From: Powellomyces hirtus
Lineage: Eukaryota > Chytridiomycota > Chytridiomycetes > Spizellomycetales > Powellomycetaceae
Length of the DNA stretch: 64,000 nucleotides
Assembly: GCA_025526995.1 (NCBI GenBank)
Contig: JAHLKG010000026.1
Coordinates: 363,815 to 427,814, forward strand
Reading direction: 5' to 3'
The notes under the pieces are model-generated. The model had not been told where the DNA came from. It saw nothing but the letters and a program-made list of their open reading frames with translations, and did no database searches. Shown here piece after piece: positions 12,938 to 52,379 of this stretch. Position 1 is the first letter of the stretch. Each line of letters opens with the position of its first letter. The position numbers were made by a program, and so were the translations under genes.

Positions 12938-15760
12938 ATGACACCCATCGAAACCCCTCAAAACGATACCGAAGCTCTGAAGGAGCGCATCTCCATGCTT
13001 GGTATGTTGTTAATTGTTTGCTTGTTATCGTTTGTAGTGACTCTGTTCTGCGTGTGTATGTGCGCATGTGAGCTTCCTCAAGTGTGACGGAGACGAACGA
13101 CGCGTTCCGGACGTGGCTTGACTGAGAAGGATCGGACAAACGCCAAAGAACGTTCTACGTGACGTCATTCGCACGTTTACGAAAGTCTGCAAAACACACA
13201 CATTCTTTCAACGCTGATTTCGTCGTGTGGGGACTGGGTCGCGCAGGTTTGGGATTGACGGAAGGCGGAAGGGAGAGTAACAACAAAGTGGGCGAAAGCA
13301 ATGGACAAAAAGTGGAAAACTGCCAGTTGTGCATGGCGAGAGGTTCAACAACGGTGGAGCCGAAATAGCGTCCTAATGCTATGAAATAGAATCTAACCGA
13401 CATGGCTCCTTTGTCTGTCACATTTGACAGCTTCGAAAGATCGCACTTTGATCTACTATCTCCAACAAAATGCCAAAATCGACGGTGAAAAGATCAGCCA
13501 CCGATTCCTGAACGATATGGCCGGCAAAAAGTCGACCACGTTCACTTTCAAGCAGCTCGATGACACTTCAGCCTCTCTCGCATACAGAATGCGCAACAGC
13601 TGGAAACTCAAGAAAGGCGACACTGTCCTCCTTCTTTACCCGCCCGGACTGCACTTCTTGGTTGCATTTATGGCCTGCTTCCGAGCCGGCGTGATCGGGG
13701 TTCCAGCGTATCCCCCCGTTCTTAGCAATCTGAAGGCTGATCTCCCAAAACTGCGGGCGATTCTGGATGACTGTGGCGCAGCCAAAGCGCTGACGAGCCG
13801 GGACTATTACATGGCCAAAACCGCTTTTGGCATCAAAAACATGCTGTCGGCATATAAATTTCCCAGCGGTTCGTACAACTGTTCATGAATGAGAAGTTCG
13901 GTTTTGAATATGCTCATATTGCGTACCAATTTTCTATGAATGCTTTTATCAGACCTCGAACTGCTCGTGACCGATACTGTCCCCGCCAGTGGCCCAAAAT
14001 TGACAGACGAAACGGTCATTTTGGATGATTTGGCCTTCCTTCAGTACACTTCGGGATCAACGGTATCGTAACTTAGAATTCTATTTCTGGATGTTCAGAC
14101 AAGAAAAGCGTAAACTCACTGTATTTTCTCGCCAAGGGTACTCCCAAAGGGAATATGATTACTCATGGAAATATGGTTCACAATCTCGCTCTGGCCAGCT
14201 ACGATGCTGGAATTTCTAGGAAGTCTGTGCAAGTGTCATGGCTTCCCCAGTACCACGACATGGGTCTCTGCTCCGGATTCCTTGCACCAGTCCTGCGTGG
14301 CCATGCGTCTGTGGTCATGTCGCCCATTGACTTCATCAAAAACCCAATGATGTGGATGCAGGCCATGTCCGATTACAAGGGAACCCTTTCGCATGCTCCC
14401 AACTTTGGATACGAACTCGCTGCTCGCAAACACGATCCCTCGAAACTCTCCGCACCTCTTGACCTTTCGAACGTCGAGTTTTTAATGAACGCAGCTGAGC
14501 CCGTCCTGTTCAGTACAATTGAGAAGTTTTACGCAACATTTGAGAAATATGGCCTCAAGCGCAATGTCATCAATCCCGCATATGGTCTTGCCGAGAACAC
14601 TGTATTCGTGGTCAGCTCGCACGACGGCAAACTGCTCAGTCACAACGACCGTGTCTGCTGCGGTGAGCCCCACTTGGATGTTGATATCCGAATCGTTGAC
14701 TCGGATACTCTCAAAGAGCTCCCCGACGGTCAAGAAGGCGAGATCTGGATTAACAGCGCCAGCAAAGCCCGTGGATACTACCGCCGCACTGACAACGAAG
14801 AGAACTTTGAAGCCAAAGTTTCTGATGCTGTTGGAGACGTCGCCAACCACAAATATCTCCGTACCGGAGATCTGGGCTTCAAAATGGATCGGGGTCTCTA
14901 CTACAGCGGACGCATTAAGGATCTCATCATAATTCGCGGCCGGAACTACATCCCGAGCGACATTGAAGCCATTGTCAACGTCCAGCCTGGCATCAGACCT
15001 GGGTGCGTTGCGGCCTTTAGCGTACCAGGTGACCACGTCGAGCGCGTCGTGGTGGTTGCAGAACTGCGTGCAACCAAGAAGAAGATGGACAAACTCGCTT
15101 TAGTCATGAAGATTGTCCAAGCTGTCAAGTCCGACGTCGGTATATCCGTGAGCTCGGTCGTCCTCATCGCGGAGCGCACGATTAGTAAGACGACGAGTGG
15201 CAAGATCCAGCGTCGCAAAAACAAAGAGCGATACCTCAAGAAGGAACACCGCGTAGTTTATGAAATCAACGGCCTTGCCGGTGATTCCGAGTTTGAAGAC
15301 GACGGGAGCGAGAGCTCCGACAGCGATTACAGCGAGAACGGTGATAACGGCTCTAGCGGTGGTTCTCAAACAGATGCTGCCGGCCCCAATTCAGGCAATA
15401 GTTCCCAAGTGGGACCTGGCTCGCCAGACGCCACGTCCGACGAGAGAAGTGACGACGAATCTCCTGTTGACATTTCTCCGGACTTCAAGAAATTGAGCCG
15501 CAGCGCGCTAATAGAAATGTCGCTCCCGGAACGTATCAATGCGTTGACTGTTCTCACGGCACAAGGAGTGAAGAAGAATCTCGGATACGTCCCAAAACCA
15601 AATCAGAACCTCATCCATAGCGGAATTACCTCTTTACAAGCCGTGCAGCTAGTTAATCACTTGGAAACTGTTTTGGAAATGCCGCTGGCTGCGACTCTTT
15701 TGTTCGAATGCTCCACTGTTGCAGCGGTCGCAAACCACATTGCAGAGCTTGTTGAAACAG
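12938..15760 (+). other. Loading module: fatty acyl-AMP ligase (FAAL) and acyl carrier
   Basis: FAAL, residues about 20-580, over four exons. FAAL-type rather than amino-acid-type motifs are seen: GDTVLLLYPPGLHFLVAF and VPAYPP, the AMP loop YTSGST/GTPKG split by an intron, SWLPQYHDMG, and the FAAL segment DFIKNPMMWMQAMSDYKGT followed by SHAPNFGYEL. The C-terminal part has SGRIKDLIIIRGRNYIP and the lysine of TSGKIQRR. The family activates a fatty acid as acyl-AMP and passes it to a carrier. A linker of mostly Asp, Ser, Gly and Glu (about 583-660) leads to a carrier domain (about 659-746) with the pantetheine Ser in SGITSLQAVQL (residue about 703). Initiation with a fatty acid makes a lipopeptide product likely; chain length cannot be read from sequence. 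Confidence 0.85.
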
Positions 15761-18700
15761 CCACCACTTATGCGAGGTCTGCCGTTACGTTCCCCGACGA
15801 GTCAGCGTTTGTCGAAAAAGCTGGTCGCGTTTTGGAGTACGCTGCTTCGCCAAGTCAGCAACGCATGTGGGTTGCTCAGCTCGTGGCCAAGGACACAAGT
15901 TACCACGTGCCACAGCTGCTGCACATCAAAGGCCGATTCGACCCTTCCGCGTGGAACAAGGCGTACTCGATCCTCGTTCACCAACACCCAATCCTGCGAA
16001 CGGTCTTCGATGCTGGTCATGACGGTCGCGTAATCGATCTTAAACAGCGAGCCCTTCCCACCGAGAAGGCCACGGTCAAGTTCCCCACTGTTGCTGTCGC
16101 TGATGTTGCCAGCGCAATCAAACTAGCTCATGCGGACAACGCGGAAGTCCATTTTGACCTAACCAACGGACCCCTTGTGCGCGGAACGTGTTACAAGATA
16201 GACAACACGGACGAATGGGTGGTCTATGTCAACTACCATCACATTGTTGTCGACGAGTGGTCATTGGGAATTGCAGCGAAACAGATCTCGACGTTGTATT
16301 ATCTCATAGTCCAAGAGGGCAACAATGACGAATCGATGTTGCGAGAAGTCTTTCCTGCTCCCAAGTTCAATTTCTTCGACTTTACAGTTGCCCAGCAGTC
16401 CGCTCTACAAGAAGAACAGGTCGCATCCCAGCTTGCCTTCTGGTCTTCGCATCTCGACGGGGTGGCTGCGCTGCAACTGCCACAATCCAAGCGGCCCGAA
16501 AGCGCCTCGAACAGTCGTGTCGCAGGAACCTGTGCTATCAACCTCTCAAATAACCTCTTCACATCTTTCAAGCAGCTTTGTTTCAACAACAGCGCGACCG
16601 CTTTCCAGGGTTTCCTGGCCGCCTTCAATCTCCTCATATCGATTTATGCTGGAAGTGAAACGGACTTTGCAGTCGGTATTCCGTATTCCAACCGCTCCAG
16701 TTATGCAACCGAAGACATTTTTGGGTTCTTCCTGAACACATTGAGCGTGCGTGCGAGCGTAGATGAGACGGCTCAGATGCAAGGATTCAGCGCATACCTT
16801 GCAAAAGTTCGGGAGAACGTACTCTCTGCCTTCAAGCACGCTGACGTTCCATTGGAGACTGTTATATCGCACCTGGCGAAGGCAGCTGGCGCGGATCGTT
16901 TCGAACCAGGTGTACACCCGCTATTCCAGGTCATGTTTGTGTACAACGACGCAACGCCGTACCGAACCGCCAAAAACATGGTGTCGGGTTGCGAGACTAA
17001 AGTTCTGTTCTTGGAGCCCGCGCATGCCAAGTTCGATCTTACTATGTTTGTGCGAGAAGAGGCTGCCAAGGACGCTGGAGCTGAAGTTCTCATCGAGTAT
17101 GATGCCAGTCGGTATGATCCCAAACTCATTCGCAACATGGCCAACCACTTCGTCGACATCATTGAAAACGTGGCCGCGTCCCCTACTGCGCCACTCTGCA
17201 AGATGTCGGTTACAAGACCTCGCGAGCTCGTGAAATTGGAATCGTACCTTCCGGGATGCGACATTCCAGAAGACTTGTTAACTCTGCCCGCAATGATCAA
17301 GAAGCAGACCCTTGCGACACCTGATGCTATAGCTTTGGAAGATGAGGACGGTCGTGTTGTCAGCTACGCCGAGCTTTCTGATCTTACTGATCGTGTTGCA
17401 AGCTACCTGCTGAGTCTAGGTCTCGCTCCCGAGTCGCTGGTTGCGTTGTGTGTGGATAAATCAATCGAAATGATTGTTTGCATGCTGGGTGTTGTCAAGG
17501 CCGGATGTGCGTACGTGCCACTCGACGGAAACAACCCGGTGGATCGCAACCGTGGGATCCTTACCCAGGCAGACTCTAGGGTCGTGTTCACGCACCCACA
17601 ATACTGCACCCAATTTGAAGGCCACGGTGTTCCTGAATGCCTCACGTCTGTCTTCGTGGTTGAGAAGAATTGCTTTAAGCAGCTTCCACAATGCGAGTCA
17701 TCAGAGCAGATCACTATATCGCACAACCAGACGGCATACTGCCTCTTTACCAGCGGGACTACCGGAACTGTGAGACATTCCCATTTTTTCTACTTCTCAT
17801 TTCTCCTCCTGAATGCTGACACAACTTTCCTTCGCTGTTTGCAGCCTAAAGGTGTCCAGGTTTCCCACAAGGCCATCTGCCTGTCAGTGGTAGAACACGG
17901 TCACATGTACGAGATTACGCCGCAGACACGATACATGCAATTTGCAAATTACACATTCGACGTCTCCGTGATGGACATTTTCTGCACCCTGGCTCATGGA
18001 GCTACGATCCTGATTGCTGCAAAAGCTTCACTTCTGCAAGACCTTGGTGCCGTCATGCGGAAGATGCGCGCCACGTTCACAGCTCTGACACCCACCGTTC
18101 TGTCCGCTCTTCTCACACCAGAGGACGTTCCAACTTTGGTCGGTCTTGGCATTTCGGGCGAGGCAATGACGCAGCAGGTTGTAGATACCTGGGCGGATAA
18201 GGTCAGGTTGATCAACGCGTAAGTTATCGAGATACGTCGTACATCATCAACAATCAGCTCACCCAAAGTCTTCCCCACTCTTTTTGCGTGTTTGCATCTC
18301 AGCTTTGGCCCGACCGAGGCAGCGTAAGTGTTTGATTGCTTCTGTTCAACGCGCATGGCCCGGCCGCCCTGACAGTTTTTCGCAGGGTTAACGTTACGAT
18401 GCAGCTCATGAAACCTGACACAGTCCCTACTATAATAGGAAAGCCGCTTGCAAATGTCTCAGTTTACATTTTAAACCGTTTCATGCAGCCGGTGCCTGAA
18501 CTTGTGACCGGGGAACTCTACCTTGGTGGGCCCCAGTTGGCAAAGGGGTACTTAAACCGCCCTGATCTCACCGACGCGGCTTTCGTGAATCATCCAATCT
18601 CTGGTGAACGCCTCTATTCTACGGGCGATATCTGTTGCTTCACTCTGGATGGACTTATTGACTACCGGGGGAGAGTCGATGGACAGTTCAAGCTTCGTGG

Positions 18701-21700
18701 CCTCAGATTGGAGAGAGATGAAATCGAATCGGTTCTGCTTTCGGCTCATCAAACCATCGACAAGTGTGTGGTCATAATGTCCCGCAAGCACACTGGTCAC
18801 GACATGCTGATTGGAGCCGTGTCTTTTTCCGATCTCTCCGCGAGCCAAAATATGGAGCTGCTATCTGAAGAATCGCTTGCGATCGCCAAACAGAGAATAA
18901 GTGAGGCTGCAAAAGTCCTGGCCAAAAAACTGCCTTCATACATGCAGTTGTCGGCTTGGATTCCCATGGAATACATCCCACTCAGCTCGTCAGGGAAGAC
19001 TGATCGGACACGCGTAAAACAATTCATTGAATCGCTCCCTAACATCGACATTGGTGTGAACTTGGACGGCTCCGCCGCCGAAGAAGAACTGGAAGATCTC
19101 GCGTCGTTCAACATCGTTCGTCAAGTCATCGGAGACGTCTTGAAAGTAGACGGCCATGCTCTCTCAGCCTCTTCCACATTCCTTGGGCTGGGTGGTGATT
19201 CCATTACTGCTATTCAGGTTGCCGCTCAATGTCGACTCAAGGGACTGGACGTGCAAGTTGAAGACATATTCCAGACCAGTAGTCTTGGTGAGCTGGCATT
19301 GCGGGCTGCCGTGGGCGAAAAGGCAGTTGCTCTCTCCCTCAGGCAAGAAACCGACGGCGAAGATTTTGATTTGACGCCTATCCAAGCACGTTTCTTCCAT
19401 CTCTATCCTACCGGTGCAAATCAGTACAACCAGTCGATAGTGCTGCGAGTGGCAGAGGCAGTGACAAGTTCGGCTTTGGAGGCGGCGCTGCAACAACTGG
19501 TGAATCGTCATGCAATGTTGCGGTGCCGTTTCATTCAGTCCGATAATGGCTGGGTTCAGCAGATCACACCTGTCGACCGCGTGCCAGAGTTCAAGCTGCC
19601 GTACCATGAAGTATCCTCCGCTACGGAGGCAAACATGATTATTGAGCAATCCCAGACTTCTCTTGATTTGCGAAGTGGACGTGTCATTACTGCGGCTCTG
19701 ATTCAAAACGTCTCCTCCGGAAGGCATAGGATCATTTTCATCGCGGTTCATCATCTCGTTGTCGATTTAGTGTCTTGGCGCATTATCTTGGACGAGCTCG
19801 AGGTTCTTTTACGAGGCGGCGAACTAAGCCCCGCATCGTCAAGTTTTCGAACATGGTCTGAGGCGCTTGCGAGTAAGGCAAATGGGCTGACTGACATTAC
19901 ATTCAAGCCTGCGGAGGAAGTTTCACGGATCCCCAACGACTTTGAGTCGGCTCCAACGAAAGTGACATACGGCGGACGGAGGGTATATGATTTCACTCTA
20001 GATGCATCAGTGACCGAGAGCATATTCCGCCCTGAAAACAAGTACCGAACTCAGCCTGTCGAATTGCTACTTGCTGCTCTGACCTTGGCATCTCGAGAGA
20101 CATTCGGTGTGCTGAAATTGCGCTTTGATATGGAGGGTCATGGTCGCGATGCCGTAAACGACGCTACCGTTGACGTTTCCCGAACAGTGGGATGGTTCAC
20201 CAACCTTTATCCCGTGACATTCTCCAGTGAGGGAGAAATCAAAAGAGTAATTCAACAGACGAAGGAAGAGCTGCGCCATGCGACAAAAACTGCCACAGCG
20301 TTTGGACTGTCCAAGTTCATCCGGAAAGACCCATCGGTGCAAAACATTCCCGTCGCAAGCGTTTTGTTCAACTTTATGGGTCGTTTCCAACAGTTGGAGA
20401 ACAAGGATCTGCTTCTAAAACTCGATGGCGATATGCTTGGTCGCGATTTGAAGCAACAGGCCGATGATCTGGAATGCCCCTATCTCTTTGAAATTAACGC
20501 GGTGCGAAATGCTGGCGAGATGCACATCTCCATCGCCTATAGTGCAGAGCATCATTTGTTTCAGACTGTGAAGAAGCTCGCCGACAACTGGACGCACGCC
20601 ATCCACCGCATCATCGATGAGACAGCATCAGCCACCGACTATTCTTGCTTCACACCGGCAGATTTTTCGTCATTGGGTGCGCTGAAGCAGGACTCTCTCG
20701 ACAAACTTATGGAACAAATCAAGATTGTTTGCCATATGCGTCCTAGAGACGTACTTGACATTCAAAATGCTACCATTGAGCAGCAAGGCCTGGTTCTTGG
20801 TCACCTGAGCAACCCAGCTCTGTACTTGCTGCAATTTGTCATTGACTTGAGGGGGCCACTGCATGTCGCGCGATTTCAGCAAGCCTGGGATAAGGTGATC
20901 CACGATAACCCGATCCTCAAGTCCCGGTTCGTTATGGGGAAGGAGGATTCTTCTCTGTTCCAAGTGCTTCCTCGCGACAGCAACATCAGCTGGTTTTTAA
21001 GCACCAGCTCAGATGATGCTAAGGCTGCCGTTTCAGCGTACTGCGAGTCCGATAGGCTGATTGAATTCTCGCTTGGTCGGCCCATGATGCGCCTAGCTCT
21101 TTTCACCGTCACCGAGAATCAATTTCAGCTTGTGTGGACCATTCACCACGCTCTTACCGATGGATGGTCGTCGCCTATGATTATGGGAGACGTTATGGCG
21201 GCCTATTATAACGAGGCCGTTCCACGAAGAGTACAATTTGCGGATGTCGTTCAGCACAAACAGCGCCAAAAGATGGATGTTAAATTTGAATTTTGGAAGA
21301 CGCATCTGCAGCAAGTATCGCAATCGAAGATTAGTGAGTGCGTCGCCAAACCTACGACAGCTACAAACGATAGCCGTATTCCCGGGACACACTTGCGCTC
21401 TTTGAAAGTTTCCGTTGCTGACCTCAAGCGTGCGGCCGCCGAAGCGAACTCGACTATTTCCAACTGCTTACGAGCCGCCTGGGCTATGGTGCTGTATAGA
21501 TACACCCGGTCCACTTCTATCACTTTTGGAGCCGTGGTTTCTGGAAGAAATCTTTCCCTCGCGGGGATCGAAACCGTCATCGGTCCGTGCATCAATACTA
21601 TCCCTGTGTGCCTCGACCTAGATGCATCGATGACACCACGCCATCTTTTGGACCTGGTCAACGAGGACCAAGTAAAGACCATGGAGCATGTGACCCTTCC

Positions 21701-24700
21701 TTTGGCTCAAATCCTCAAAGCCGCCGGATTGACCGGGAATAGTCAGTTGTTCGACTCTCTGCTGATTTACGAAAACTATCCTTGGGTAGAGGCAAGCGCG
21801 ACGCCTCGGGACTTGGCACTGAACGTGGAACGCCATTCGGAGGCTACCGAGTACCCGATGGTGCTGTTTGTTGATAATGACGATTCAACTGTCAAAGTCG
21901 AGATCCAATATGACACGTCCATCTTCACTGACAATGTGATTGTCATGCTCGCTAAACATTTCAACAACGCATTGAGCACTATCGCTAGCCAGATGCCCGT
22001 GATGATTGGTGTCTTTCCGATGCTCGATGCGGAGGAACGCATTGAAAGCGTTCACGCAAGACAGTTCGATCTTCAGAGCTTCACAATGGCCCATCACCTA
22101 ATTGAGGAACAAGCGGCTCGTGTTCCGAATGCCGTTGCCCTCGAATTCGACGGTGGCGCCACGATGACGTATCACAAACTCAATTCCAAGTCTAACCAAC
22201 TGGCAAGATATCTAATCTCTCAAGGCGTTCAGAAAGAGGATCTGGTGGCTATCTGCATTGACCGCTCGTTTCAAATGGTGATTGCCATCCTTGCAATCGT
22301 TAAGGCTGGCGCCGCGTATGTTCCATGCGATTCTTCTGTCCCCATTGCCCGCAATGAGGTTGTCATTCGTGAAGCGCAAGCGGAAATACTTTTAACAACG
22401 GCAGAGCATGCCCCGATCTATGGCAATAGCAGTGAATTGAACATTATCATACTGGATGACGAGCGGTTTCCCTGGGAAGCCCAGGACGAAGGTAATCTTG
22501 ATATTTGCGGATTAAATATGACTAACGCTGCATACGTTCTTTTCAGCTCGGGAACTACTGGAACGCCAAAGTAAGCCACAACCCCAAAGCTTGCCGTCAT
22601 ATACCACTGATATCCAAAGCCTTACTTTTGCCTACCCCCACTAGGGTGAATGCGAAGCACTACCCGCGTAGTTGTCGCTATGAGTTTCGCTCATTCTGAT
22701 ACACATATAGGGCATTGTGATAGAGCATGGAGCTCTGGCAGTATCAATTCAAGAACACGCTCGTATGGAACACTTCTGTGAAGGATATCGCGTGCTGCAA
22801 TTCTCTAGCTACACATTTGATTACTCTGGTACGCTCTACAGAGAACCTGAAGCCATAATCACAGCCATAGCCAGGATCGCACTGACTCTTACCATCTTCT
22901 TGTTACTTCTCGTAGTTATGGATATATTTGGAACGTTGTCTTTCGGAGGAATTCTTTGTATGGCCACCAAGGATCGGATGCTAGGTCATCTGGAAGAGGT
23001 GGCTTCGTCGATGGGAGTCAACTTTGTTTGCACCACTCCTACGGTCATCTCTATGATCAACCCGGAGGCGGTTCCAACGCTTACTACGGTTTCAATCGGT
23101 GGCGAGTGCATGACTCAAGGCGTGATCGACACATGGGCTGAAAGGGTTGAGCTGATCAACGTATACGGTGAATACCTTCTTTCTATTTCAAGCAAATCTC
23201 GCGCATACTGTCAATTAGCGATTAATTTGATTTTCGGAAATGAAGGGCCAACGGAGTTTACGGTCAACGCAATAATGGGAAGAATGACAAAAGATTCCTC
23301 GAAGCAGAATATCGGCAAAGTGCTCGAGCACACACGGGCGTACATTTTGGATGAAAATCTGCAACAACTTCCACTATGCGTTACGGGAGACCTATGGCTT
23401 GAGGGACCGCAACAATCTCGAGGATACTTGGGCCGACAAGATCTTACGGACGCTGCGTTTCGATCAGATTGGAATGGTCTCCGCTTGTACCGCTCCGGGG
23501 ATCTAGCTCAACGGCTTCCGGACGGCACGTTTCTGTGCCTGGGACGTATTGATGACCAGGTAGGTGGATCTGCATTTATACCAGAAAGCAGATAACAAAG
23601 AAGGTATAACAATCCCGCTCAAGGTCAAGATCAATGGCCAGCGTATTGAGATGAAAGACGTGGAATCGAATATATTTACTTGCGAGGGCATTACCGGATG
23701 CGCCGTGGCGCTCTGGCACAATTCATGCGGAGAGGCCCAACTCGCCGCGTTTGTCAAATGTCGGGAATTGCGAGCGACGGAGAAGGCTGAGCCTGTGCGC
23801 ATACTTCAAGACGCTGCAACCGAGAAGGCCATCGCGGATTTGACCGCACATCTGCGCAAGGTCTTACCACAATACATGGTGCCAGCCATTATCTGTGGCG
23901 TCAATCGCGTGCCTATGTCTAGTGCTGGCAAGGCAGACCGCAAGACTTTGCTTGCCCTACTTGCGAATGGACCCATCCACATTCGAGCAAAGGCAAAGGA
24001 AGTCATCTTGCCGCGCAATGCTGAAGAGGAAGTATTGCTCAAAATTCTCGAAACCCAGCTGCGCTTGTCCGCGCCGCTAAGCGTAGATGAAGACTTCTTT
24101 ATTGCCGGACTTAACTCACTTGCAGCTATTAAGCTAGTTTCCTCAATCTCTGATCTCCTGGGTGTTGATGTACCGGTCGGTCAGATTTTCATGAACCCGA
24201 CAGTCACTGATCTGGCTACTGTTATCCGATCGATGCAAGAGGAAACTAACTCTCTCGAGAGCCCACGCATGGCTAAGCAGTCTATCGTTACTGATGGCCC
24301 GGAAACTATCCGCGTCTTGGCTTCGGACTCACAGAAGGCGATGTGGATGCTGCAAAACATGCAGCAGAATACCAGCTATCACATGTTTAGCATGATGAAG
24401 CATCCGGGAAATCTGCATGCTATCAAGCTTAGTCAAGCACTTGACTCCCTCAGTCGTACTCATAGCATCCTCAGAACCACATTCGAACTCGACGAAGACA
24501 CGGGCGATGTTTATCAGCTGATTCATCCCACTCTTCCCGTTCAATTTACTTCGATTGAGCTCAGCTCTGAGATCGACAACGAGGAAGAAGAAGCTCGCAC
24601 CTTCGCATCGAAAGATAACCTCACTATGTATAACTTGGCGGCTGGGCCACTTGCGCGATTCATTCTGTTCCAAGGCGCCAAATCCTCCTTCTTATACTTC

Positions 24701-39700: not shown

Positions 39701-42700
39701 GGGAGCCAGAAAGCAACTGTTCCCGGCGTCATCAGCTCAACAGAAGATGTGGATGCTTCAGCAGATCAAAAACGACAGCACGTATCACATTCCTTTGCTG
39801 GTGCATGTCGAATCTTCATTGGACACCACTCTGCTTCAGCGGTCCCTAGATACCCTCCTCCAACGGCATTCAACCCTCAGAACCACTTTCTACCTGGAAG
39901 TCAAAAACAACCAGTTAATGCAAGTTCTTCATTCCGAACTGGCTGTCGATTTAATGGACAAAACCTTCCGTACGCCAGAGTCGCGTGATCTCTGGACAAA
40001 GTCAAACAACGAGGAGGTCTTCGATCTGAGCCACGGTCCGTTGCTCCGAGTCGCTTTACTGCGTGTACCGGAACACGAGGACATTCTGTACATCAACATC
40101 CACCATATCGTCGCTGATGAGTGGAGCATCAATATTTTGCTGACAGAGTTGGCGGAGGCTTACCGTGCGGGCACTGCTATTGCCAAGGCTGCAAAGCAGT
40201 GGCACTATGTTGATTTTTCCGAATGGCAATGGAAAAAGCTGAGATCTGAGGATGTTGCAAGCGCGCAACTCAACTACTGGGCGACTAAACTGAAAGATGT
40301 ACCTGTCCTCCAGTTACCGATGGGAAAGAAGCAAATCGGTGATCAGAAAGCTGGAAGCGTTCGACATTCCCTGGGCAATATGGCTGAGTTTGGCGGAATA
40401 TGCAAGCGTGCTGGCGCCTCGATGTTCATGGGGCATCTTGCTATTCTAGAGGTGCTGCTCTACAGATACAGCGGTCAAACCGATTTTGCTATTGGTACGC
40501 CGTGCTCTACGCGAGAACACGCGGTCACAATGAATTTGATCGGACTATTCCTCAACACGATCACTTTGCGCTCAGACGTGGAGGCGACCGATTCGTTTGA
40601 CAACTTGTTGACCAAAGTGAAATCTACTGTCGTTCAAGGCTTGAAGAGAAAGGATGTGCCCTTTGAGCAGATTGTGGAAACCCTCAATGAAAAGCGCGAA
40701 GACGTTTCTGCTCATCCAATCTTTCAGGTCATGTTTGTATTAAACTCCAGCATGGATCAGAGTCGAAATACTTCTCAGCTATTCGGCGGATGCAGAATGG
40801 AAGAACTGGGACAAAGCCGGGCCAAGTTTGGTCTATCATTTGCCATCTCGGTTCTTGGTGGAGAGGCAACCCTTTCCATTGAGTATGATGGGAAGCAATT
40901 CGAGAGATCGACGGTGGACAGAATGGGATTGAACTTCAAAACACTGATTCGTTCGGTTTGCATGTCATCTGAAACCACTCTCTCAAGCCTTCAGCTTGTC
41001 AACCCGGACGATCGTTCGATCTTGATGAAAGGCTCTTTTGTTGCGCATAACCATGCGCACCAGAGCCGGTGCATCCATCATCTGTTTGAGGACGCCGTAA
41101 ACCGCTTTGGAGGCAAGGTCGCCATCGATTTCCACAACCACACTACGATGACATACAAGGAATTGAACTCTGCCGCGAACAAACTGGGAATCTATCTTCA
41201 AAAGCTGGGTGTTGGGCCAAACGTTCCCGTTGGCCTCCTCGCCGATCGCTCCGTTGAGATGATAGTGACCATGCTGGCTATCCTCAAAGCAGGAGGATTT
41301 TACATACCAATGGACGTGGAACATCCACGAGCGCGTCAAAATCAGATCCTCGCGCAGTCCGGATGTACCATTGTAGTCGCCCACAAACACTATCATTTTA
41401 GTGATTTGCAAGCTGCACGTCTCGTTGACATCGACGACAAATCTCGTTGGGAATCCAACGAATCGAAAAACTTCTCAGTCCCAACTTTGACGGAGCGAGA
41501 CCTGGGATATGTTATTGCCACGAGTGGCACGTCGACGGGTCAACCCAAGCTGGTCCAGATCGAACACCGCTCAATTGTACAGGCGATGCTTCAACATCAT
41601 CAGACTTTCCAATGGACTGCAGACGACCGCCATTTGCAGTTTGCCGCATATACCTTTGATGTTAGTGTCGGGGACATATTCGGCACACTTACAACTGGAG
41701 CTACCCTTTGCATCGCGACGAAGGAGGACTTGTTGACAAACCTGCCAAAGGTCATGAACTCGATGAGAGTAACCGCAGCGATGTTGACTGCTAGTGTCGT
41801 ATCGGCATTAGTTCGTCCAGATGACGTCCCGACCCTTACTCGGATGTCGCTATCTGGTGAGCCAATGCTCCCTTCCATGATTGCGACCTGGGCAGAGCGC
41901 ATCCGACTTTTTAATGGTTATGGTGAGGTGGCCATGACAAATCATCGCAGTAGGATTGGAACTTACTCTTCCTCTAGGCCCTACAGAAGTGACTGTTCAC
42001 ACGTCTTTCAACCTTGTGACCCCAAAGCATGACGCTATGGATCTAGGCAGGCCTTTTCACGGTGTCTCTTACTATGTTTTGGACGAAAACCTGGAGCCTG
42101 CTCCGTTTGGAGTAGTTGGGGAAATTCACATAGGAGGAACTCAGGTCAGTTGGCCACAAGCCATGTTTCGGTGAGAAACACAGGAGCAAGCCGGTTAATC
42201 TCATTTTTCATGAACAGGTTGCGCGAGGTTATCTCGGCATGCCCGATCTCACTTCTGAGCGCTTCGTATATGGTCCTGCAGGGGAAGATTTACTTCTGTA
42301 CAAGACTGGTGATCTTGGCATTGCCAGAGAAGATGGAGGTTTTACCTTTGTGGGCCGGATTGGGGACGGACAGGTCAAAATCAGAGGTGAGGCGATCAAT
42401 GGTAGCGGGCAAGGTTTATAATGTGTTCAAACTGACCATGCTTTATAGGCTTGCGTATTGAGCTTGGCGAGGTCCTCTCGGCTGTGACGAAGACCCTGCT
42501 TGAATTTGCGACCAGCACGGCGCTAGTCTCAAAGCATGCAGAAACGGGCGAGCAGCAGCTAATTGTCTTTGCGGCTCGTGCAAATAACAAACCTCCATCA
42601 GCACTAACGGTGCTTCACTCGTATGTCGGTCCAATCGAGATGAAGGCAATCCGGCTGTCACTGCAGAAATATCTCCCAACCTACATGCTTCCAGATGTGT

Positions 42701-45700
42701 TTGTGGAGGTATCCCATATACCCCGCAACAGCTCTGGGAAGACTGATTCAAGGGCATTGTTGGCAAAACTCGGAGAAATTGCGCGCACGCCGTCCACTAA
42801 AAGCCCTATCAAAAAGCCAACGAAAACACCATGTGAGCGCCGTGTAATGGAGCTCGTAAGCACAACTCTTGGTCATGAGAACTTCGAAGTATCGGACGAC
42901 CTCTTCAGCGTCGGCATGAACTCACTTGGAGTTATGAAGTTGTGTGGCGCGATTGGACGCGAGTTCGAGAAGGAAATCTCCGTATCTACCGTTTTTGCTG
43001 GCCCGACGATCAAAGAGATCGCGAACTACATTGAGTCCATCACCACGAAAAGCAGCTTCCAGACCGTCTCGATGGTGGTCCCAGGAATCGAAACCATCAC
43101 TATCGCGTCATATGCCCAAGCACGGATGTGGTACCTCAACACGGTAGCCAACGACAACTCGTATAATGTTCCCGTTGCTATTCGAATTCCCGAGCGTTTG
43201 AAAGTTGAGGAGGTTCAAGAGATGTTTATCAAGCTTCAGTCTCGGCACTCAATATTACGGACAACCCTCTTCTATGACACCAGATCTGAGGTTGTAATGC
43301 AGAAGTTGCACGTCCGGTTGCCGCTCCTCATTGATTCGCAAACTATCTCATCGATGGAGGAGGTTCAGACGCGTTGCCTCAAGGATAACCACATTCTTCA
43401 CAATTTGGAGGAAGGACCGCTCTTGCGAGCGATTGTTTTCAGCGTCAAATCAGCCGAAACGGTTCTGTACATGAACTTCCATCACGCCATTATCGACGAG
43501 TGGAGCCTAAGTCTCCTGTTGAACGAGTTGAACTCGCTGCACCAAGGAGAAGTCCTCAAGCCAATCAACCTGCAATACGCGGACTTCTCGATCTGGCAGC
43601 GAAACCTTCTGGAAGCTAATGACGGAGCTGGAAAACGCAAACAGCTCGCTTTTTGGAGTGATCACCTCAAGGAAGTCACGGTTTTAGAATTGCCCAGTAC
43701 TCTCACCAGAACATCTACTATGAAACGATCTGCTGGGATCTTCGTTATAAAGCTTGGTGCATCCACCACGGAGTCTTTTCACCGCTTGTGCACCAGCGTT
43801 CACGCGACCGAGTTTATGGGATACTTATCAGTGTTCAACATTTTACTCTGGCGCTACGCGGGTCAGCTGGATTTCGCTGTCGGAACTCCCGTTTCGAATC
43901 GCGAAGGACCACAAATGGCTGAAATGCTGGGCATGTTCGTCAACACTGTGGCTCTGCGATCACAACTCGTTGCTACCAACTCATTTTATCAGTACTTGGA
44001 AGTCGTGCGTCGAAATTGGATTGCCGTCATGCGCAACAGCCAAATATCTTTTGAATCTGTTGTAAATTATCTTGGCGGCGGATCGGTGGAGAGGAACCCA
44101 ATCTTTCAAACCATGTTCGTTCTGAAATCATCGTTTGTAGAAGATAAGGCAACTCTGGGCGAAATACTTCCTATTCAGCACACGAGGGCCAAGTTTGATC
44201 TCACAGCAGCCGTTGAGCTCAAGACTGACGGGGCGGTTGTGAGTTTCGAGTACGACGCTGACCGATTCTCCGAAGATTCAATCATGCGGATGGCGGAGAT
44301 GTACAAACAGCTTCTCATGTCTGTTCTAGATAACCCTTCGATTGAAGTGGGTTTACTGCGGATGATCCCGGAGGAAGATGTGGCTGCCCTAAACGCATTG
44401 TACGAGACGCCTTTGTTGCCTGAAGTTGACGATCTGGTCCACCAGCTGGTAGAAAGGCAGGTAGCCTTAACACCTGAAGCTATCGCCGTGGAAGTGTTTG
44501 GAAGTGACGCCCGTTTAACTTACGGAGAGCTGGACATCAAAGCCAACAAACTCGCCTCCTATCTGCGCTGTAACGGTGCAAAAACTGGAGGCTGCGTTGC
44601 ATTGTGCATGGAAAAGGGGACCTGGATGATCATTGCTATGCTAGCGGTGCTCAAAGCTGGCTGTGCGTACGTGCCGCTTGACGCCGACAATCCGATTGCT
44701 CGCAACTCGTTTATCATTCGTGAAGTCGAGGCCTCTCACCTCATCTCAACTGCGGAGTTCACGGATCTGCTCAAATCAACGCTCGCCGATAGCGTCATGG
44801 GAGTCATCATCGATGACGAAACTGATGCCTGGAATCGATCGTCTGACGCCACCCTCACCATCGGCGATCTCACACCGGAAGATAGGGCCTACATCCTCTT
44901 TACATCCGGTACATCCAACTTGCCTAAAGGAGTGGAGATAGAGCATCGCGCAGGCTCCGCTGTGATTGGAGCGCTCTCTGCGGTTGAGAAACTGAATAGC
45001 GGCACACGCTTCATGCTCTTGGCTGCCTACACATTCGACGTCTCATTCGCAGATATCTTTAGCACTTTAGCAACAGGCGGCGTTCTTTGCTTAGCTACAA
45101 AGAATGAAATCCTCACCGATCTCGGTTTGGTTATCCGAACTATGAGAGCTACACATACAGCAACCACGCCGACGGTACTATCGTTGCTCAGTCCCGAACA
45201 AGTGCCAACGCTGAAAACACTCTCAATTGGTGGGGAGGCGATGCAAGCACGCATCATTGACCGATGGGCGCCCAAGACCAGATTGTTGAACGTTTATGGT
45301 GAGCCAATAACTTATGCTAAAGATAATCACGAGAGAATGCACTGACGGCTCCGTATAGGACCAACTGAATGTGCTGTAGACGTCACAGCTCATGAGGTTC
45401 TTCTCACTTCGAATTCCCGAAACATTGGACGCGCTTTCAACACGACTCACCTTTATGTCCTTGATGAGTGGATGCAGCAAGTGCCATTCAATGTGCAGGG
45501 CGAACTCTATATCGGAGGTAAATAACATTCAAACGTTTCTGACACGCTACTTCATAGCTGACTTTACCACATCTCAGGACGTCAACTGGCGCGCGGTTAC
45601 CTTAAGCGTCCTGATCTTACTGCGAAAGCATTTGTTCCCCACCCATTCCGTGCTGGAGAAACGCTGTACAAAACTGGCGATCGTGTAAGGATGGATCCCA

Positions 45701-48700
45701 ACGGCGACATTTACTACTTTGGGCGTATCGGTGGTGACATGCAGGTACTCCTCAGCTCCCCGAGTTTTATCAAAACCATTGTTTCTTAACACATGATCAT
45801 GTACCCTAGATCAAAATTCGCGGCTTGCGTGTCGAGCTCCTGGAAATCCAAAATATTCTCGAGGAAGTTCCTTGTATTAGTCAAGCCGCCGCCACGGTCA
45901 TGAAGTCCAGCTCCAACGAAGACCACATCGTCGGTTTCGTGGTGGTCAAAGGAATGGAACGACTGTCAGCACCTTTAACTTTATTGGACAATCCCGAATT
46001 AAACAAAATACGAGCGGAATGCATTGCTATGGTCGCTGCAAAAGCTCCACCGTATATGGTTCCCAATGTGATTGCGGTGGTCTCCAAAATTCCGCAGAAC
46101 GCCTCCGGAAAGACAGACGCAAAGCAGCTGAAAGCCCTGACAGGTGACTTACTCAAAATGCATTTAACAACCCGGCAGACTCGTGCACAGAGAAGGCCCT
46201 TCAATGCCGGCGAGCAACCACTCTATGATATCCTGAAGAAGCTACTGAAGACGAGCGACATTCAAGCGGAAGATGACTTCTTCGCGATTGGGATGACGTC
46301 AATCACCGTGGTTCATTTTATTGCTGCAATCAGCGAAGAGCTCGAGGCGCGTTTGACGTTTGTTGAGGTCTATGAGCACCCCTCCATTGCACTCCTTGCT
46401 GCATATATGGGCACGAAAGACCCTCAGATGGAAAATAGCTTCCCTAACAAATCGCTCATCACTGACGACAAGGACCACAAATTCCCAGCCTCTGCCACTC
46501 AAGAAAGGATGTGGTTATTACAAAAACTTTACGACAACGCCGCGTACTATGTACCAATGATGTTCATCACAGAATCGGAAATGAGCTACTCGATGTTTGA
46601 GAAGTTGATCGCGATCATCGTACAGAGACATTCGATTCTTCGCACGACTTTCGAACTCGACAGTCATGGAAAGCTACAACAGATCGTCCGTCGAAGTATG
46701 GCGACCGCATCTGAATTTATCAATTTCTGTGGAAGCGCAAACGCTCTTGAGCAAGCTCGGGAGCAAGCATTGAACGACCTCAAGAATCCTTTCGATCTCG
46801 CAAATGGACCTCTCACACGCTGGAAGATGATGCAGCTGGACACGGAGCGGACCGCTATTTATATCTGCCTGCACCATATTCTAGTTGATGAAGCCAGCGT
46901 GAAGATCCTCATGAGCGACCTTTCAGCCTCTTACCTTGCCCTCAAAAACAACACTCTTTCACTGCTACCGGCCGTCAAATTCAATTACGCTGACTATTCA
47001 GAATGGCAGAGAGCACGCCTCGAAGCAAATGACGGAGAGCTTGCTGCAGCACAAAGGAGTTACTGGTCGAAGCAACTGGCCGATCTTCAGGAGATGCACT
47101 GGCCTGTGCAGAACATCGAAGGAAGCGACGGAGGCGCTGCAGGAACAGCTCGGGCTCATTTGCCAAACGCTTTGACTGAGCGATTTAATGCGTTGTGCAC
47201 GTTACGATCATGCACACCATACGTTGGGTTCTTGTCGCTGTACTTTGTACTGCTCTCGCGTCATACTGGATCGGACGACTTAGCTGTGGGCACGGCAGCA
47301 AACGTTCGAGACAATCCTAGCATCCTGGGTATCATGGGTCCGTGCATCAATACTCTAGCTCTCCGAGAATCTTTGGACTACGACATGAGCTTGGAAAATC
47401 TCTTTTCTAAAGTCAAGCAGACGGTCATCAGCGGTCTTGCAAACGCGGATCTGCCTTACGAAGACGTGATTCGGGAAATTGGAACCTCGGAAGTCATCTT
47501 TAAAACGATGTTCGTTCTTGAGACGGCCACTCCGGAATCCGAGGCTTTTGGCATGGATGCCGAATTTGTGCCTTTGGCCCCCTCATCGAGCAAGTTTGAC
47601 ATGATCTTCAGCGCCATATCCTCCGCAACTGGCTATGACTTTGCGATCGAGTACAACTCCTTAGTTCTGTCCTCGAGATTCATCGATGAGTTTTTGAGCC
47701 GATTTATTACTCTCATCACAGATGCTTGTGAGAATCCATTGACCTCGATTGGTCTCGCACGAATCATGACGGACGAGGAACACGCGGCCATAGTGGCAGA
47801 GCTGAATCCCGAAACTGGGTTCCGAAAAGAAGATCATCAAACTCCCTTGCATCAGATGGTTGAAAAACAAGTTGTGGCTACCCCGGATGCCAAGGCCATT
47901 CTCTTTGAAAATGGTTCGACGATTTCATACAAGGACTTGAACAATAGAGCAAATCAGCTTGCTCGCCACCTGCAATTGATTGGCGTCCAGCCGGGCGAGA
48001 TTGTCGCGATTTCCTTCGACAAGTCGTTCGACATGATCATAGCTATGTTAGCAGTGCTGAAAGTGGCTTGCGCCTATTGCCCGATCGATACCGCTGTACC
48101 CGTGGACCGACTGAAATCTATGCTGAAACAATCAAAGAGTACGACGGTCGTTACTGCAAGCGAACATACTCACATGTTTAGCTCAAGCGGCCTTCAGATT
48201 GTCTCGATGGCAAATCGCAATTCTTGGAGCTCCTTTCCATCTGATAACTTGGACGTGCCTGTCGCAATGAATGATGTTGCATATTGCCTGTACACTTCGG
48301 GAAGTACTGGCGAGCCGAAAGGGGTGCTGATTGAGCACTACGCAATCGCAGTTGCAGTAGCTATGTTCACGCACGACCTGGGAATTGATCGAGATACCCG
48401 CCATTTACAATTTGCTGCGTATACCTTCGATGTGTCGGTGATGGACATCTATATCTCGCTCACAAACGGTGCATTGTTGTGCATGGCTTCGAAGCAGTCT
48501 CTATTAACAGACTTGCCACGAGTCTGTCGCGAAATGGAAGTTAACATTGTTTCACTCACGCCATCAGTGTTGGATGCACTGTTGAGCCCTGGTGATGTTC
48601 CTACGCTGACAAAGGTAGTGACAGCTGGAGAAGTCCTCCCACAGCAGGTGATGGACAGGTGGAGCACTGTCGTGAAGCTATTCAATTCTTACGGTAAGAT

Positions 48701-51700
48701 CAACATTTGTAACAGTCTAAAGGCTTGTTTCGAGCAAATCTGAAGGGTTGTTGCTGAATAGGTCCGACCGAGACAACGGTTTTCCTCTCAAATTATATAT
48801 GCAAGAAAGGTGATACCGAAAGCACTCTTGGAGTGTGTGTCCCTGGAACCAAGGCATATGTACTCGATGATCATATGCAGCTTGTGGTGGAGGGCAAGGC
48901 CGGAGAGCTTTATCTTGGTGGAGCTCAGTTGGCGAGAGGCTACATGGGTCGACAAGATCTCACAGACGAACTTTTTATTCCTAATCCCTACATTGAGGGT
49001 GAAAGGATTTACAAGACTGGTGATCGAGCGCGCTACTCGCGATTCACGGATGGCCGCCCTGCTTTCCTTCACTTCGTAGGAAGGACAGGAACGAATTTCC
49101 AGGTTCAAATCAGAGGTGAGGTTTCTTTGGTTATCCCAGGGATTCGTGGAACTTCAAAGCTGACCTCGTGCAACTAGGTTTGCGTGTTGAACTCGGAGAG
49201 ATACAAACTGTTCTCAACAACGCGCCTGGTGTCTCTTCGTGCGGTGTTCTTTACCGTGAAGATCTGAGAACTCCCACATTGGTCGCGTACGTTCTGCACA
49301 ATAATCACCAGCTTCCGGATGCAGCACGTCCGGCTGAGATCAAGAAGATGCAAGAGTTCTTGAAACTCAAGCTTCCCGAGTATATGGTTCCTCACACCTT
49401 TGTATTTGTTGACAACATGCCGCTCACCACCACTGGAAAGCTCGACCGGACTGCGCTTATGAAGCGTCATGGCATCATTATGGAGCCCAGCACCCAGAAC
49501 ACTATGGGTGTTGCGTCTCGTAAACCCGAACGACATCCGGATTTGAAGAGGATTTGGACAGACATTCTGGGTGTTGAAGACATCAAACAAACTGACTCGT
49601 TCTTCGTGTTGGGAGGCCATTCGCTCCTGGCCGTGAAACTGAAGACAATGGTAGAGGCACACTTCCAGATTCCTTTCACGATGCAAGCAATCTATAACAA
49701 CCCGACTCTCGGAGATATGGCATCCTACATCGACACTGCAAAGATGGACATTGCGCCATCCGAGAATGACAAATCCGAAGTCAGAGAACTAATCGAGGCT
49801 GAGCAACGACAAACTCCAATCGCGATGGACGATTTTGCGTCGGACCTGCGAACCACTCCCGTTCTGGAAATCCGTGCGCCCGTGTCTCTCATTGATGACG
49901 GCAAGCCGCGCCTGTTCATGGTTCACGCTTTGTTCGGTATGGCGTACGCCTATGCGATTCTCGGTGGTCATCTCACCGTTCCATGCTACGGAATCGCCAA
50001 CCCGCATATCGGGAGGAACAGGTTTAAGACGCTGACCGAGATGGCGTATCATTACGTGGATCTTGTGCGAAAGATCCAACCAAAGGGTCCCTACTATTTG
50101 GGTGGACATTCGGCTGGTGGACACATTGCAATGGAAATGGCGCACATTTTTCAGTCTTTGGCTGGCGAGCGCGTAAATTGTGTCATCATGCTGGATTCCG
50201 TCCATCCAGGAATCTTCCCTCCGACGCACGACGTGACTTTGGAAGCGACACGAGAGATGGCGATCAAGCAAGGCCTAGGTGGTGCTCATATTGACAGTGC
50301 GGCTCAGGCGCTGTACAACGAGGCAAACCATACGTACGGACTGTTGTTAGCAGGATCATCCATCTGGCAGAGCCTCTACGACGGACCGGTGACATTGCTC
50401 AAGGCAATTGACGAAGTCGAGAACGCTGATCCGTTCAACGGATGGTCTACGCATCTCACTAATTTGGAAGTCGTGTCTGTGCGCGGAACTCATGACACGA
50501 TTTTGAATGTTGAGAATATCGTAGCGACCACTGCAGCGATCCAGAAATGCATCGATGAACCGCATGCAAGCTCAGGACTGTCGTTTTGTCAAGGGCGCTC
50601 TATGAAAGAAGCCAACTACTTGCGCGCCGTGAAACGAGGAGATCGGATTCTTGTTACTCGATTGCTCGACGTTGCCTGCGTCAATCCTAACGTCACCGAG
50701 ATCCACAGCGGCCGTACCGCATTGCACCTCGCAGTACAGCACGGCGGCGAGCCTAGCATGATTCGCGCACTCATCGAACGTCAGGTCAAACTTTCCACAG
50801 GGGACGCAGAGGGTTATACCGCCCGGGAACTTGCCCTTAAGAACCCTGGAACGGCACACCGATACGAGCCGATCTTTGAAGAGGCGTTGAGGAACGACCG
50901 CCGCCGGAGGATGTCGATCAGCAGTTCGATGTACTCGCTTCCTGACAAATCACAAACGGTCCGTGCATTCATCAAGAAACACTTTGATGTGAGCATTTCG
51001 GGTAGCCGCGTGCGAGAGTGTCGCGCGGACATTGGTGCGCTGAGCCAGCACATCTGCGGCGCCCGTGCCTTGCAAAAAATCACGTCCGACATCGCTGTGA
51101 GGCAGATTGAAACGATTTTGATAGAGCACTCGAACGTCGAGGCGGTGATTGTGAAGAAGGTTGACAAGCAGCACCTAGCATTCATTGAACTAAAACGCCC
51201 GGTCAAGTCTGTCGCGGAGCGCGAGAACCTGATGATATTCTGCCGCGATCACGCAAGCAAGCCGGAGCAGCTTCCCTCCGCCCTCGTCAACCTTTCGCGT
51301 ATGCCCAGACTACCAAACGGAAAGATTGATTCTGAGGCAATTGACCAGATGCTCATCAACCAGACCGGAGCAAACAAGCCGGCGAACATAACAGTCGAGG
51401 ACGTGCGAAGCTTTCTGACGGAATTGCTGACGCTTCTGTTGGATAAGTCAGAAGTCCTGTCGGACACGCCTCTGATGACTACGGTAATGAGTGGCCAGAC
51501 TCTATCGCAGTTATTGGCACTTGTGTGCTGCAAGTGGCCGTCGCTTATGATTGGCGCGGAGTTTATCCTGGCGGCCAGTACTGAGAATATCGATGCTCTC
51601 AGCCGCTTGATTCACAGCCAGCTGACTCCGGAAGTCACAGCTCCTCAAGCACAAGAAAAAGAGCCTAGTAGACCGTTGCTCCCTCGGTCAGCCAGCCTAC

Positions 51701-51930: not shown

Positions 51931-52379
51931 ATAGATAGTTCATAATTGAGATATGCCGTCCGCAGCTACTTCTTGAAATGGCGTAGAGTATATGAAGTGA
52001 TAGACGGATAAACGAATAGATTGATTTAAGACAAAGAAAGAATACGTAGTGTCACACACAGCAGTACGCACATCTTCCTTCTTCTCCAAAGTATCATTGC
52101 CGTATTACGTTGTCCGTTGCCGTGTCGCATCTCGGGAAGTACATCGCCCCTTGGCCGTCGGCGCCGACGGACCGTTTACTCTAGGTATCAGACCCAACAC
52201 TTACACCAACAGCTCAAGGGACTCGGTCAGGCTCCCACACTGGTCAATGTCTCCACAATCTCCCACAAAAAAGAGTGTTAGCAGTGCTATACAGGGATCC
52301 TACGGTCGCCCTGCTCATCTTCCACACCCGTCGGAGTATCTCTTTCCGCTACACCCTCGACCGATATACTTTCTTAGCA
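51931..52379. other. 3' flank of the synthetase, no gene recognised
   Basis: An AT-rich segment directly after the stop probably holds the 3' UTR. The open frame starting at 52049 runs into the GTPase relic but its first 110 codons look non-coding. Confidence 0.4.

What the first reader, a model, noticed from the sequence alone, without database searches (positions are those of the whole stretch)
12938..51930. A single giant fungal-type synthetase starts with a fatty acyl-AMP ligase and ends with a thioesterase
Seen: FAAL-ACP, ten C domains, nine A domains, one E and a TE with GHSAG, all in one 32-exon frame of about 12,135 residues. Known: FAAL starters and type I TE release are hallmarks of bacterial lipopeptide lines, while fungal synthetases usually end in terminal condensation or reductase domains. 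Inference: a eukaryotic lipopeptide pathway with bacterial-like ends and fungal-like middle modules, predicted to make an N-acylated peptide of 9-10 residues with a D residue at position 1.
Basis: partly seen in the sequence, partly recalled or inferred. Interest (0 to 1): 0.88.

Follow-up and report, generated by a model that had tools for sequence, protein, structure and literature searches.

The report
Chytrid fungus's giant lipopeptide-making enzyme
A zoospore-forming fungus appears to encode, in one giant gene, a whole assembly line that attaches a fatty acid to a short peptide; its starting unit looks related to fatty-acid-activating enzymes of other eukaryotes rather than to those of the bacterial lines it resembles.

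Summary
A + strand gene, 12938-51930, encodes a 12,135-residue NRPS: FAAL-ACP-C1-A1-PCP-E-C2-A2-...-C10-A9-PCP-TE, with ten C, nine A, one E, eleven carriers and a GHSAG TE. The window is a chromosome end of a flagellate, chytrid-like fungus. "Bacterial-like ends" is not supported for the start: the FAAL groups with oomycete, diatom and plant FAALs, apart from bacterial NRPS-starter FAALs (AU p 0.008), and C1 groups with the gene's own elongation C domains (AU p 0.025). Modules share intron positions (19 coincident pairs; 0.2 or 1.9 expected), which points to duplication inside a eukaryote. Best reading: a lipopeptide synthetase assembled in a eukaryotic lineage, loading its acyl starter in cis. 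TE origin, acyl chain, residues and product are unknown. New variant of a known kind.

The parts
12938..51930 (+). Whole NRPS gene, 12,135 residues, 32 introns in my model
   Evidence: Splice model; N-terminal region lines up with that of P0160 from residue 9
13431..15330 (+). FAAL-clade ligase
   Evidence: PF00501 and PF23024; PDB scores; trees
15595..15741 (+). Starter carrier (ACP), Ser in GITS
   Evidence: PF00550; motif
15835..17229 (+). C1, expected to take the acyl-ACP donor (HHIVVDE)
   Evidence: PF00668; trees
17260..19000 (+). A1
   Evidence: HMM-guided splice model
19116..19298 (+). PCP1
   Evidence: PF00550
19368..20633 (+). Epimerase domain of module 1 (HHLVVDLVS, EGHGR)
   Evidence: PF00668, TIGR01720, groups with the epimerase-like domain of the C20 NRPS and three bacterial rows (100)
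20811..22001 (+). C2 after the epimerase (HHALTDG)
22065..23924 (+). A2; the model needs a one-base exon at 22645
24317..25594 (+). C3 (A3 and its PCP follow)
27700..29025 (+). C4 (A4 and its PCP follow)
31148..32431 (+). C5 of the module without an A domain
32588..32773 (+). PCP5, directly followed by C6: no A domain between C5 and PCP5
   Evidence: two C and two PCP stretches in one exon; Ser present
32861..34183 (+). C6 (A5 and its PCP follow)
36403..37677 (+). C7 (A6 and its PCP follow)
39717..41015 (+). C8 (A7 and its PCP follow)
43093..44391 (+). C9 (A8 and its PCP follow)
46476..47792 (+). C10 (A9 and its PCP follow)
49909..50600 (+). Type I thioesterase, GHSAG
   Evidence: PF00975 E 4.2e-19; the only PF00975 match over cut-off found in the genome; PDB best NocB, E 1.4e-18
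50623..50844 (+). Ankyrin repeats behind the TE
   Evidence: PF12796 34.7 bits, cut-off 27.3; PF12796 also listed for P0160
51094..51363 (+). Possible remnant of an adenylation C-terminal subdomain (LPNGKID), with a carrier-like stretch without Ser behind it; kinship unsure
   Evidence: hhalign probability 77; three NCBIfam acyl-ligase models have their best stretch here but none passes 0.001 on its own; Pfam finds nothing in the tail
7265..11201 (-). Neighbouring divergent full ABC transporter, a candidate exporter
   Evidence: PF00664 and PF00005 twice over three frames; MsbA/TAP-like models, under their cut-offs

Best explanation
A chytrid lipopeptide synthetase assembled within the eukaryotic lineage. 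A FAAL-clade ligase makes acyl-AMP and loads the adjoining ACP in cis; C1 joins the acyl group to residue 1; the E domain turns residue 1 to D and C2 accepts it; further C-A-PCP modules extend the chain; C5-PCP5 is bypassed or loaded from elsewhere, giving 9 (or 10) residues; the TE releases the chain as a free acid or ring. Starter: a eukaryotic FAAL(-ACP), not a bacterial lipo-initiation unit; body: duplicated intron-bearing modules. Shown: domains, order, motifs, trees, introns. Inferred: all chemistry, one transcript, product.
For: Domain order and signatures: HH motif in 10 of 10 C and in the E, Ser in 11 of 11 carriers, D235-type Asp in 9 of 9 A domains, GHSAG. Both ends in one annotated protein, P0160. 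FAAL: 72 of 72 bacterial NRPS FAALs of the tree on one side (100), chytrid pair on the other with 12 eukaryotic and 5 unnamed rows; with 37 more prokaryotic FAALs the pair lies in a set of 19 eukaryotic or unnamed rows (97) next to Bacteroidota, Calditrichota and Acidobacteriota FAALs (99); AU p 0.008 against the bacterial NRPS group. C1, C3-C10, 6 of 6 Thoreauomyces C and 2 C domains of the C20 NRPS form one clade (99-100), apart from a clade of 25 bacterial FAAL-linked C domains (100); AU p 0.025. HHxxxDE in 9 of 10 window C against 23 of 797 HHxxxDx motifs in 278 other proteins. 19 coincident intron pairs among nine A domains, null means 0.23 and 1.93. Orthologous A domains keep pocket letters: A6 identical, A4 one change.
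Against: No transcript, no compound, no assay. FAAL relationships within the eukaryotic side are unresolved (supports 1-44); with DIP2 rows added the two supports fall to 94 and 86, and a tree holding the chytrid pair with the genome's DIP2-like gene scored 10 log units better than the free search (p 0.76; very long branches). 6 of 22 sampled first C domains behind bacterial FAALs lie outside the 25-row clade; C1 was tested by AU only against the 25. The AU groups were named after seeing the trees; all trees are quick searches of sampled rows (careful runs did not finish). No Dikarya sequences in the C and A trees. The FAAL-specific insertion region is about 23 residues short, so transfer to ACP rather than CoA is assumed. 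A2 needs a one-base exon. The TE was not placed.
Confidence: 0.72

Rival explanations
1. A ready-made bacterial lipopeptide synthetase (FAAL-ACP-C...TE) was taken up by a fungus and later gained introns.
For: The order FAAL-ACP-C-A is that of many of the 120 listed hits (mostly 37-44% identity), and giant bacterial NRPSs with FAAL are listed; chytrid A domains sit among bacterial ones in a tree that holds only bacteria as outside references.
Against: FAAL and C1 fall outside the bacterial FAAL-linked clades tested; modules share intron positions, so many duplications post-date introns; all nine A domains join six A domains of other NRPSs of the genome (100).
Confidence: 0.15
2. The locus is not one working enzyme: several transcripts, or a line with dead modules (C5-PCP5 without A, odd A2 splice), so that fewer residues are used.
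For: C5-PCP5 lacks A; A2 needs a one-base exon; the Thoreauomyces protein is 6,937 aa with 6 C domains and one A domain reduced to a 69-residue fragment.
Against: No internal stop in the 12,135-codon model; the relative is annotated as one protein with both ends; motifs are intact in the C, E, carrier and TE domains.
Confidence: 0.2
3. The starter ligase loads something other than a plain fatty acid (for example a polyketide acid, as nematode PKAL-1 does), or feeds CoA instead of the ACP.
For: The insertion region is short; PKAL-1, said to lack the insertion, loads a polyketide acid (PMC8363725 passages).
Against: An ACP with its Ser follows directly in cis; the best-scoring solved structures include labelled fatty-acid--AMP ligases.
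Confidence: 0.25

Closest known systems
P0160, hypothetical protein HKX48_002804 of Thoreauomyces humboldtii (unnamed family)
   Same: FAAL-ACP-C1 start, HHxxxDE (5 of 6) or HHxxxDD (1 of 6) C domains, TE, ankyrin and the same tail; 57% identity over 98% of the first 1,040 residues queried, 53% over TE and tail
   Different: 6,937 aa, 6 C domains (C1, C4, C6, C8, C9, C10 by tree); no counterpart found of the A1-E-C2-A2-C3-A3 block or of C5-PCP5; its contig is 32.5 kb, shorter than the 39 kb gene here, so it cannot hold all modules unless repeats were collapsed
Fungal lipopeptide lines with a separate acyl-AMP ligase (GloD for pneumocandin, PleB for pleosporacin)
   Different: There the ligase is a separate protein (PleB 481 aa) and release in fungi is called frequently by a terminal C domain; here ligase and TE are in cis
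Bacterial FAAL-started NRPSs (cyanobacteria, myxobacteria and others)
   Same: Domain order FAAL-ACP-C-A-PCP, some with TE
   Different: FAAL and C1 lie outside their main clades
Oomycete FAAL-ACP proteins (e.g. P0013 Lagenidium, P0024 Pythium)
   Same: FAAL fused to a carrier, in the same set of 19 FAALs
   Different: About 750-790 aa, no condensation domain listed
Nematode nemamide line (PKAL-1, NRPS-1)
   Same: Eukaryotic FAAL-type loading enzyme without the usual insertion (PMC8363725 passages)
   Different: PKAL-1 is a separate enzyme that loads a polyketide acid; hybrid PKS-NRPS

Membership tests
FAAL | Closer to FAALs than to acyl-CoA ligases or amino-acid A domains | tested here: met
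   PDB: labelled fatty-acid--AMP ligases up to 208 bits; the top rows (233) are labelled polyketide synthase and recalled as FAAL structures; some FAALs are labelled acyl-CoA synthase; first plain acyl-CoA ligase 73; NRPS A domain 49; 6ulx, 6ulw and 4r0m 125-127. NCBIfam fatty-acid--AMP ligase models lead among ligase models but stay under their curated cut-offs. Not tested in one tree with A domains
FAAL | FAAL-specific insertion (a hallmark; some FAALs are reported to lack it, PMC8363725 passages) | tested here: inconclusive
   Segment 31 residues in 2 of 2 chytrid rows; medians 56 (12 eukaryotic rows, two of them cut; two others 36 and 37), 54 (5 unnamed), 54 (14 bacterial NRPS, minimum 32), 54 (37 prokaryotic, minimum 37)
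FAAL | Bulky CoA-pocket residues and FAAL-specific helix | not tested
   Positions are given for EcFAAL in PMC8460268 (passages); not mapped here
Bacterial lipo-initiating NRPS | First C domain belongs to the bacterial FAAL-linked C clade | tested here: not met
   AU p 0.025. 16 of 22 sampled first C domains are in that clade, 6 lie elsewhere among bacteria
Bacterial lipo-initiating NRPS | FAAL belongs to the bacterial NRPS FAAL group | tested here: not met
   AU p 0.008
Fungal trans-lipo-initiated NRPS (GloA/PleA type) | Separate acyl-AMP ligase | tested here: not met
   Ligase fused in cis; only two PF23024 loci found in the genome, this one and a DIP2-like gene. GloD/PleB-type ligases were not searched for
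Fungal trans-lipo-initiated NRPS (GloA/PleA type) | Carrier before the first C domain (T0) | tested here: met
   PF00550 at 15595-15741
Multimodular NRPS | Ordered C-A-PCP modules with core signatures | tested here: met
   one module lacks A
Type I NRPS thioesterase | PF00975 domain with GxSxG at the end of the line | tested here: met
   about 440 residues follow it
Epimerisation domain | HHxxxD, EGHGR and TIGR01720 over cut-off | tested here: met
Produced lipopeptide | An acyl peptide from the organism | not testable with these tools

The most novel reading that the evidence does not exclude
Lipo-initiation in cis was invented a second time, in zoosporic fungi: a eukaryotic FAAL-ACP was fused to a home-grown NRPS whose ordinary elongation C domain was turned into an acyl-accepting C1, and a type I TE with an ankyrin tail (perhaps with a decayed adenylation piece) stands at the far end, perhaps to place the megasynthase or steer release.
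Probability: 0.45. Interest if true: 0.72.

Novelty: new variant of a known kind. Interest (0 to 1): 0.62.

Why it matters
NRPSs have been called scarce in Chytridiomycota (PMC2823734, based on one chytrid genome; passages), and zoosporic fungi poor in secondary metabolites (PMC7466969, passages). A 12,135-residue line with in-cis acyl loading and TE release in such a fungus would show that the bacterial lipopeptide layout can be reached from eukaryotic parts, gives a compact single-gene target for finding a new acyl peptide, and makes a question testable: what must change in an elongation C domain for it to take a fatty acyl donor.

Tried and rejected
AlphaFold2 of TE plus tail on two sequences: mean pLDDT 39, only 65 of 687 residues at 70-90 (mostly in the ankyrin part); not used. 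Adding the genome's own DIP2-like gene to the FAAL tree: end branches of 3.9 and 7.4, little information. rRNA for a species name: no 5.8S found. EF-1alpha: the two strong hits read by eye as EF-Tu and eRF3, two weak ones unreadable; that some chytrids use another factor is recalled, so I rest the chytrid call on Zn2Cys6 genes, dyneins and the Thoreauomyces hit. Residue prediction from A-domain pocket letters: letters extracted (numbering recalled, the tenth letter K was set, not read), but no table to read them against, so no residue is named. TE phylogeny not run; TE hits are 39 proteins, the TE-bearing ones at 24-32% identity. Tail as an adenylation remnant: only weak support, and Pfam finds no family in the last 329 residues. 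Careful IQ-TREE runs did not finish; quick trees used. Literature: 8 of 10 paper searches used. Going by the listed titles and abstract starts, none describes a chytrid lipopeptide NRPS; that is a statement about these listings of open-licence papers only.

Full report
The gene. The window lies at the end of a contig (G000:C26:363815-427814; the contig is 427,814 bases long) and closes with TTAGGG repeats, so the locus is subtelomeric. The model came from a home-made splice dynamic programme refined by scoring sampled splice paths in each A domain against an HMM built from four of the gene's own A domains, so exact junctions are predictions. The start region is supported by the relative P0160, whose alignment begins at residue 9 here and residue 7 there. 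One junction is odd: in A2 two introns flank a single base at 22645.

Domains. Pfam finds FAAL-type AMP-binding with PF23024, a carrier, Condensation eleven times, eleven carriers in all and one Thioesterase; nine A domains were assembled across introns. The order is FAAL-ACP-C1-A1-PCP-E-C2-A2-PCP-C3-A3-PCP-C4-A4-PCP-C5-PCP-C6-A5-PCP-C7-A6-PCP-C8-A7-PCP-C9-A8-PCP-C10-A9-PCP-TE. The epimerase is confirmed by TIGR01720 over cut-off, HHLVVDLVS and EGHGR. Module 5 has C and PCP but no A domain. Nine of ten C domains read HHxxxDE; only C2, behind the epimerase, reads HHxxxDG. In 278 other proteins fetched here HHxxxDE is 23 of 797 HHxxxDx motifs. Behind the TE come ankyrin repeats and then a stretch that may be a remnant of an adenylation C-terminal subdomain: hhalign gives probability 77 against the gene's own A-domain ends, and three NCBIfam acyl-ligase models place their best stretch there, but none of these passes 0.001 on its own, their whole-protein E-values may also include the real A9 end, and Pfam finds nothing in the last 329 residues. 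The tail is kept in the relative (53% over TE plus tail).

Organism. The genome has 29.3 Mb in 60 contigs, 15 Zn2Cys6 matches, a family with no match in 14 prokaryotic controls and recalled as mainly fungal, and 21 dynein C-terminal matches at 12 places, as expected of a flagellate fungus. The best protein hit is in the chytrid Thoreauomyces humboldtii (2082 bits, 57% identity; next best 1714 bits in a Corallococcus protein, 38% over 36% of the query) (1000 matches among 2369 candidates, 120 listed). No species name is claimed.

The relative. P0160 has 6,937 aa and six C domains; by tree they match C1, C4, C6, C8, C9 and C10. Four near-full A domains match A4, A6, A7 and A9; a 69-residue fragment stands between C9 and C10. 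Its contig is 32.5 kb, so a 39 kb gene like this one would not fit; real module loss or a collapsed assembly are both possible. Pocket letters (numbering recalled) agree: A6 identical, A4 one change, A7 and A9 more diverged. Within this gene A1 and A5 have identical letters and A4 one change, so three positions may carry the same residue. Among the 120 listed hits and the 120, P0160 is the only protein with a eukaryotic name that is listed with both PF23024 and PF00668; many rows carry no name.

Where the FAAL comes from. In a tree of 91 FAALs all 72 bacterial NRPS-linked rows form one side of a branch (100) and the chytrid pair lies on the other with 12 eukaryotic and 5 unnamed rows. Because could not return stand-alone bacterial FAALs (length limits; only 7988 candidates scored), I scanned prokaryotic genomes (80 loci kept, best 41% identity) and rebuilt the tree with 37 of them: the chytrid pair sits in a set of 19 eukaryotic or unnamed rows (97), next to FAALs of Bacteroidota, Calditrichota and Acidobacteriota (99). 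Holding the chytrid pair with the 33 rows of the bacterial NRPS group lowers the likelihood by 73.8 (AU p 0.008). Limits: the group was named after the tree was seen; which eukaryotic FAAL is closest is unresolved; with two rows of the genome's DIP2-like gene added the two supports fall to 94 and 86, and a tree holding the chytrid pair with DIP2 scored 10 log units better than the free search (p 0.76), on very long branches; P0106 carries a plant name that I could not check for contamination.

Where C1 comes from. In a tree of 138 C domains the nine non-C2 C domains of this gene, all six of Thoreauomyces and two of a second NRPS of this genome (contig C20) form one clade (99). Of 22 sampled first C domains behind bacterial FAALs, 16 lie in one clade of 25 (100) and 6 elsewhere among bacteria, where some HHxxxDE domains also occur; none lies in the chytrid clade. 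In a 74-row tree both groups are single clades (99-100 and 100). Placing C1 with the 25 costs 49.1 log units (AU p 0.025). The A domains form one clade with those of Thoreauomyces (92) and, with six A domains of other NRPSs of this genome, a clade at 100; a seventh, on C15, groups with bacterial rows. No Dikarya sequences were at hand for these trees.

Introns. 29 introns lie in the nine A domains; nine positions, phase included, recur in two to four modules, giving 19 coincident pairs; 20,000 random draws each gave means of 0.23 (uniform, maximum 4) and 1.93 (same hot spots, jittered, maximum 13). Junction choice was guided by the gene's own HMM, which may favour agreement, but the presence of introns at these motifs does not depend on it. 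Modules were therefore most likely copied after introns were in place, i.e. in a eukaryote.

Setting. Other NRPS regions of the genome lie near contig ends on C1, C13 and C20, with a single C-A-PCP stretch 46 kb from the end of C15; C4 is interior. On C1 and C4 the last domain found is a C domain (on C1 only about 1.7 kb of contig remain behind it), the release type called predominant in fungi (PMC2823734 passages), whereas this gene has the only PF00975 match over cut-off found in the genome. A divergent full ABC transporter stands upstream.

Known work. In ascomycetes a separate acyl-AMP ligase (GloD, PleB) loads an N-terminal carrier of the NRPS (PMC12177691, abstract and passages). FAALs occur across eukaryotes; the fungal group named there is the tandem DIP2/CPS1-like protein (PMC8460268, passages). 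Nematode PKAL-1 is reported to act as a FAAL without the usual insertion (PMC8363725, passages); here that region is 31 residues against medians of 54-56. Fungal TE release is known, e.g. ACV synthetases (PMC2823734 passages), and a TE is reported in a Basidiobolus NRPS (PMC7466969 passages), so the TE alone is not new.

Verdict. A real, intact-looking lipopeptide-type synthetase of a chytrid-like fungus with in-cis acyl loading. Chemistry, transcript and product remain to be shown.

Noticed in passing
window 63617-64000: TTAGGG telomere repeats close the contig, so the NRPS lies about 12 kb from a chromosome end.
   Followed up: yes
G000 contigs C1, C13, C20, C4 (L012-L024), C15 (L025): Further NRPS regions: multimodular on C1, C13 (both strands), C20 and C4, one C-A-PCP stretch on C15; those on C1, C13 and C20 lie near contig ends. 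C20 carries an epimerase-like domain and two HHxxxDE C domains of the same clade but no PF23024 match.
   Followed up: partly
window 52025-52711 +: Frame with a guanylate-binding-protein N-terminal domain (PF02263); the open frame begins about 95 bases after the NRPS stop.
   Followed up: no
window 57610-58167 +: A separate ankyrin-repeat frame about 6 kb downstream.
   Followed up: no
window 62850-63320 +: Frame that by eye resembles a retrotransposon gag stretch next to the telomere; no Pfam match.
   Followed up: no
window 3716-4522 +: TMEM135 N-terminal-like frame (PF15982).
   Followed up: no
L027, G000:C13:54194-54670: Weak thioesterase match under cut-off about 18 kb from an NRPS region.
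   Followed up: no
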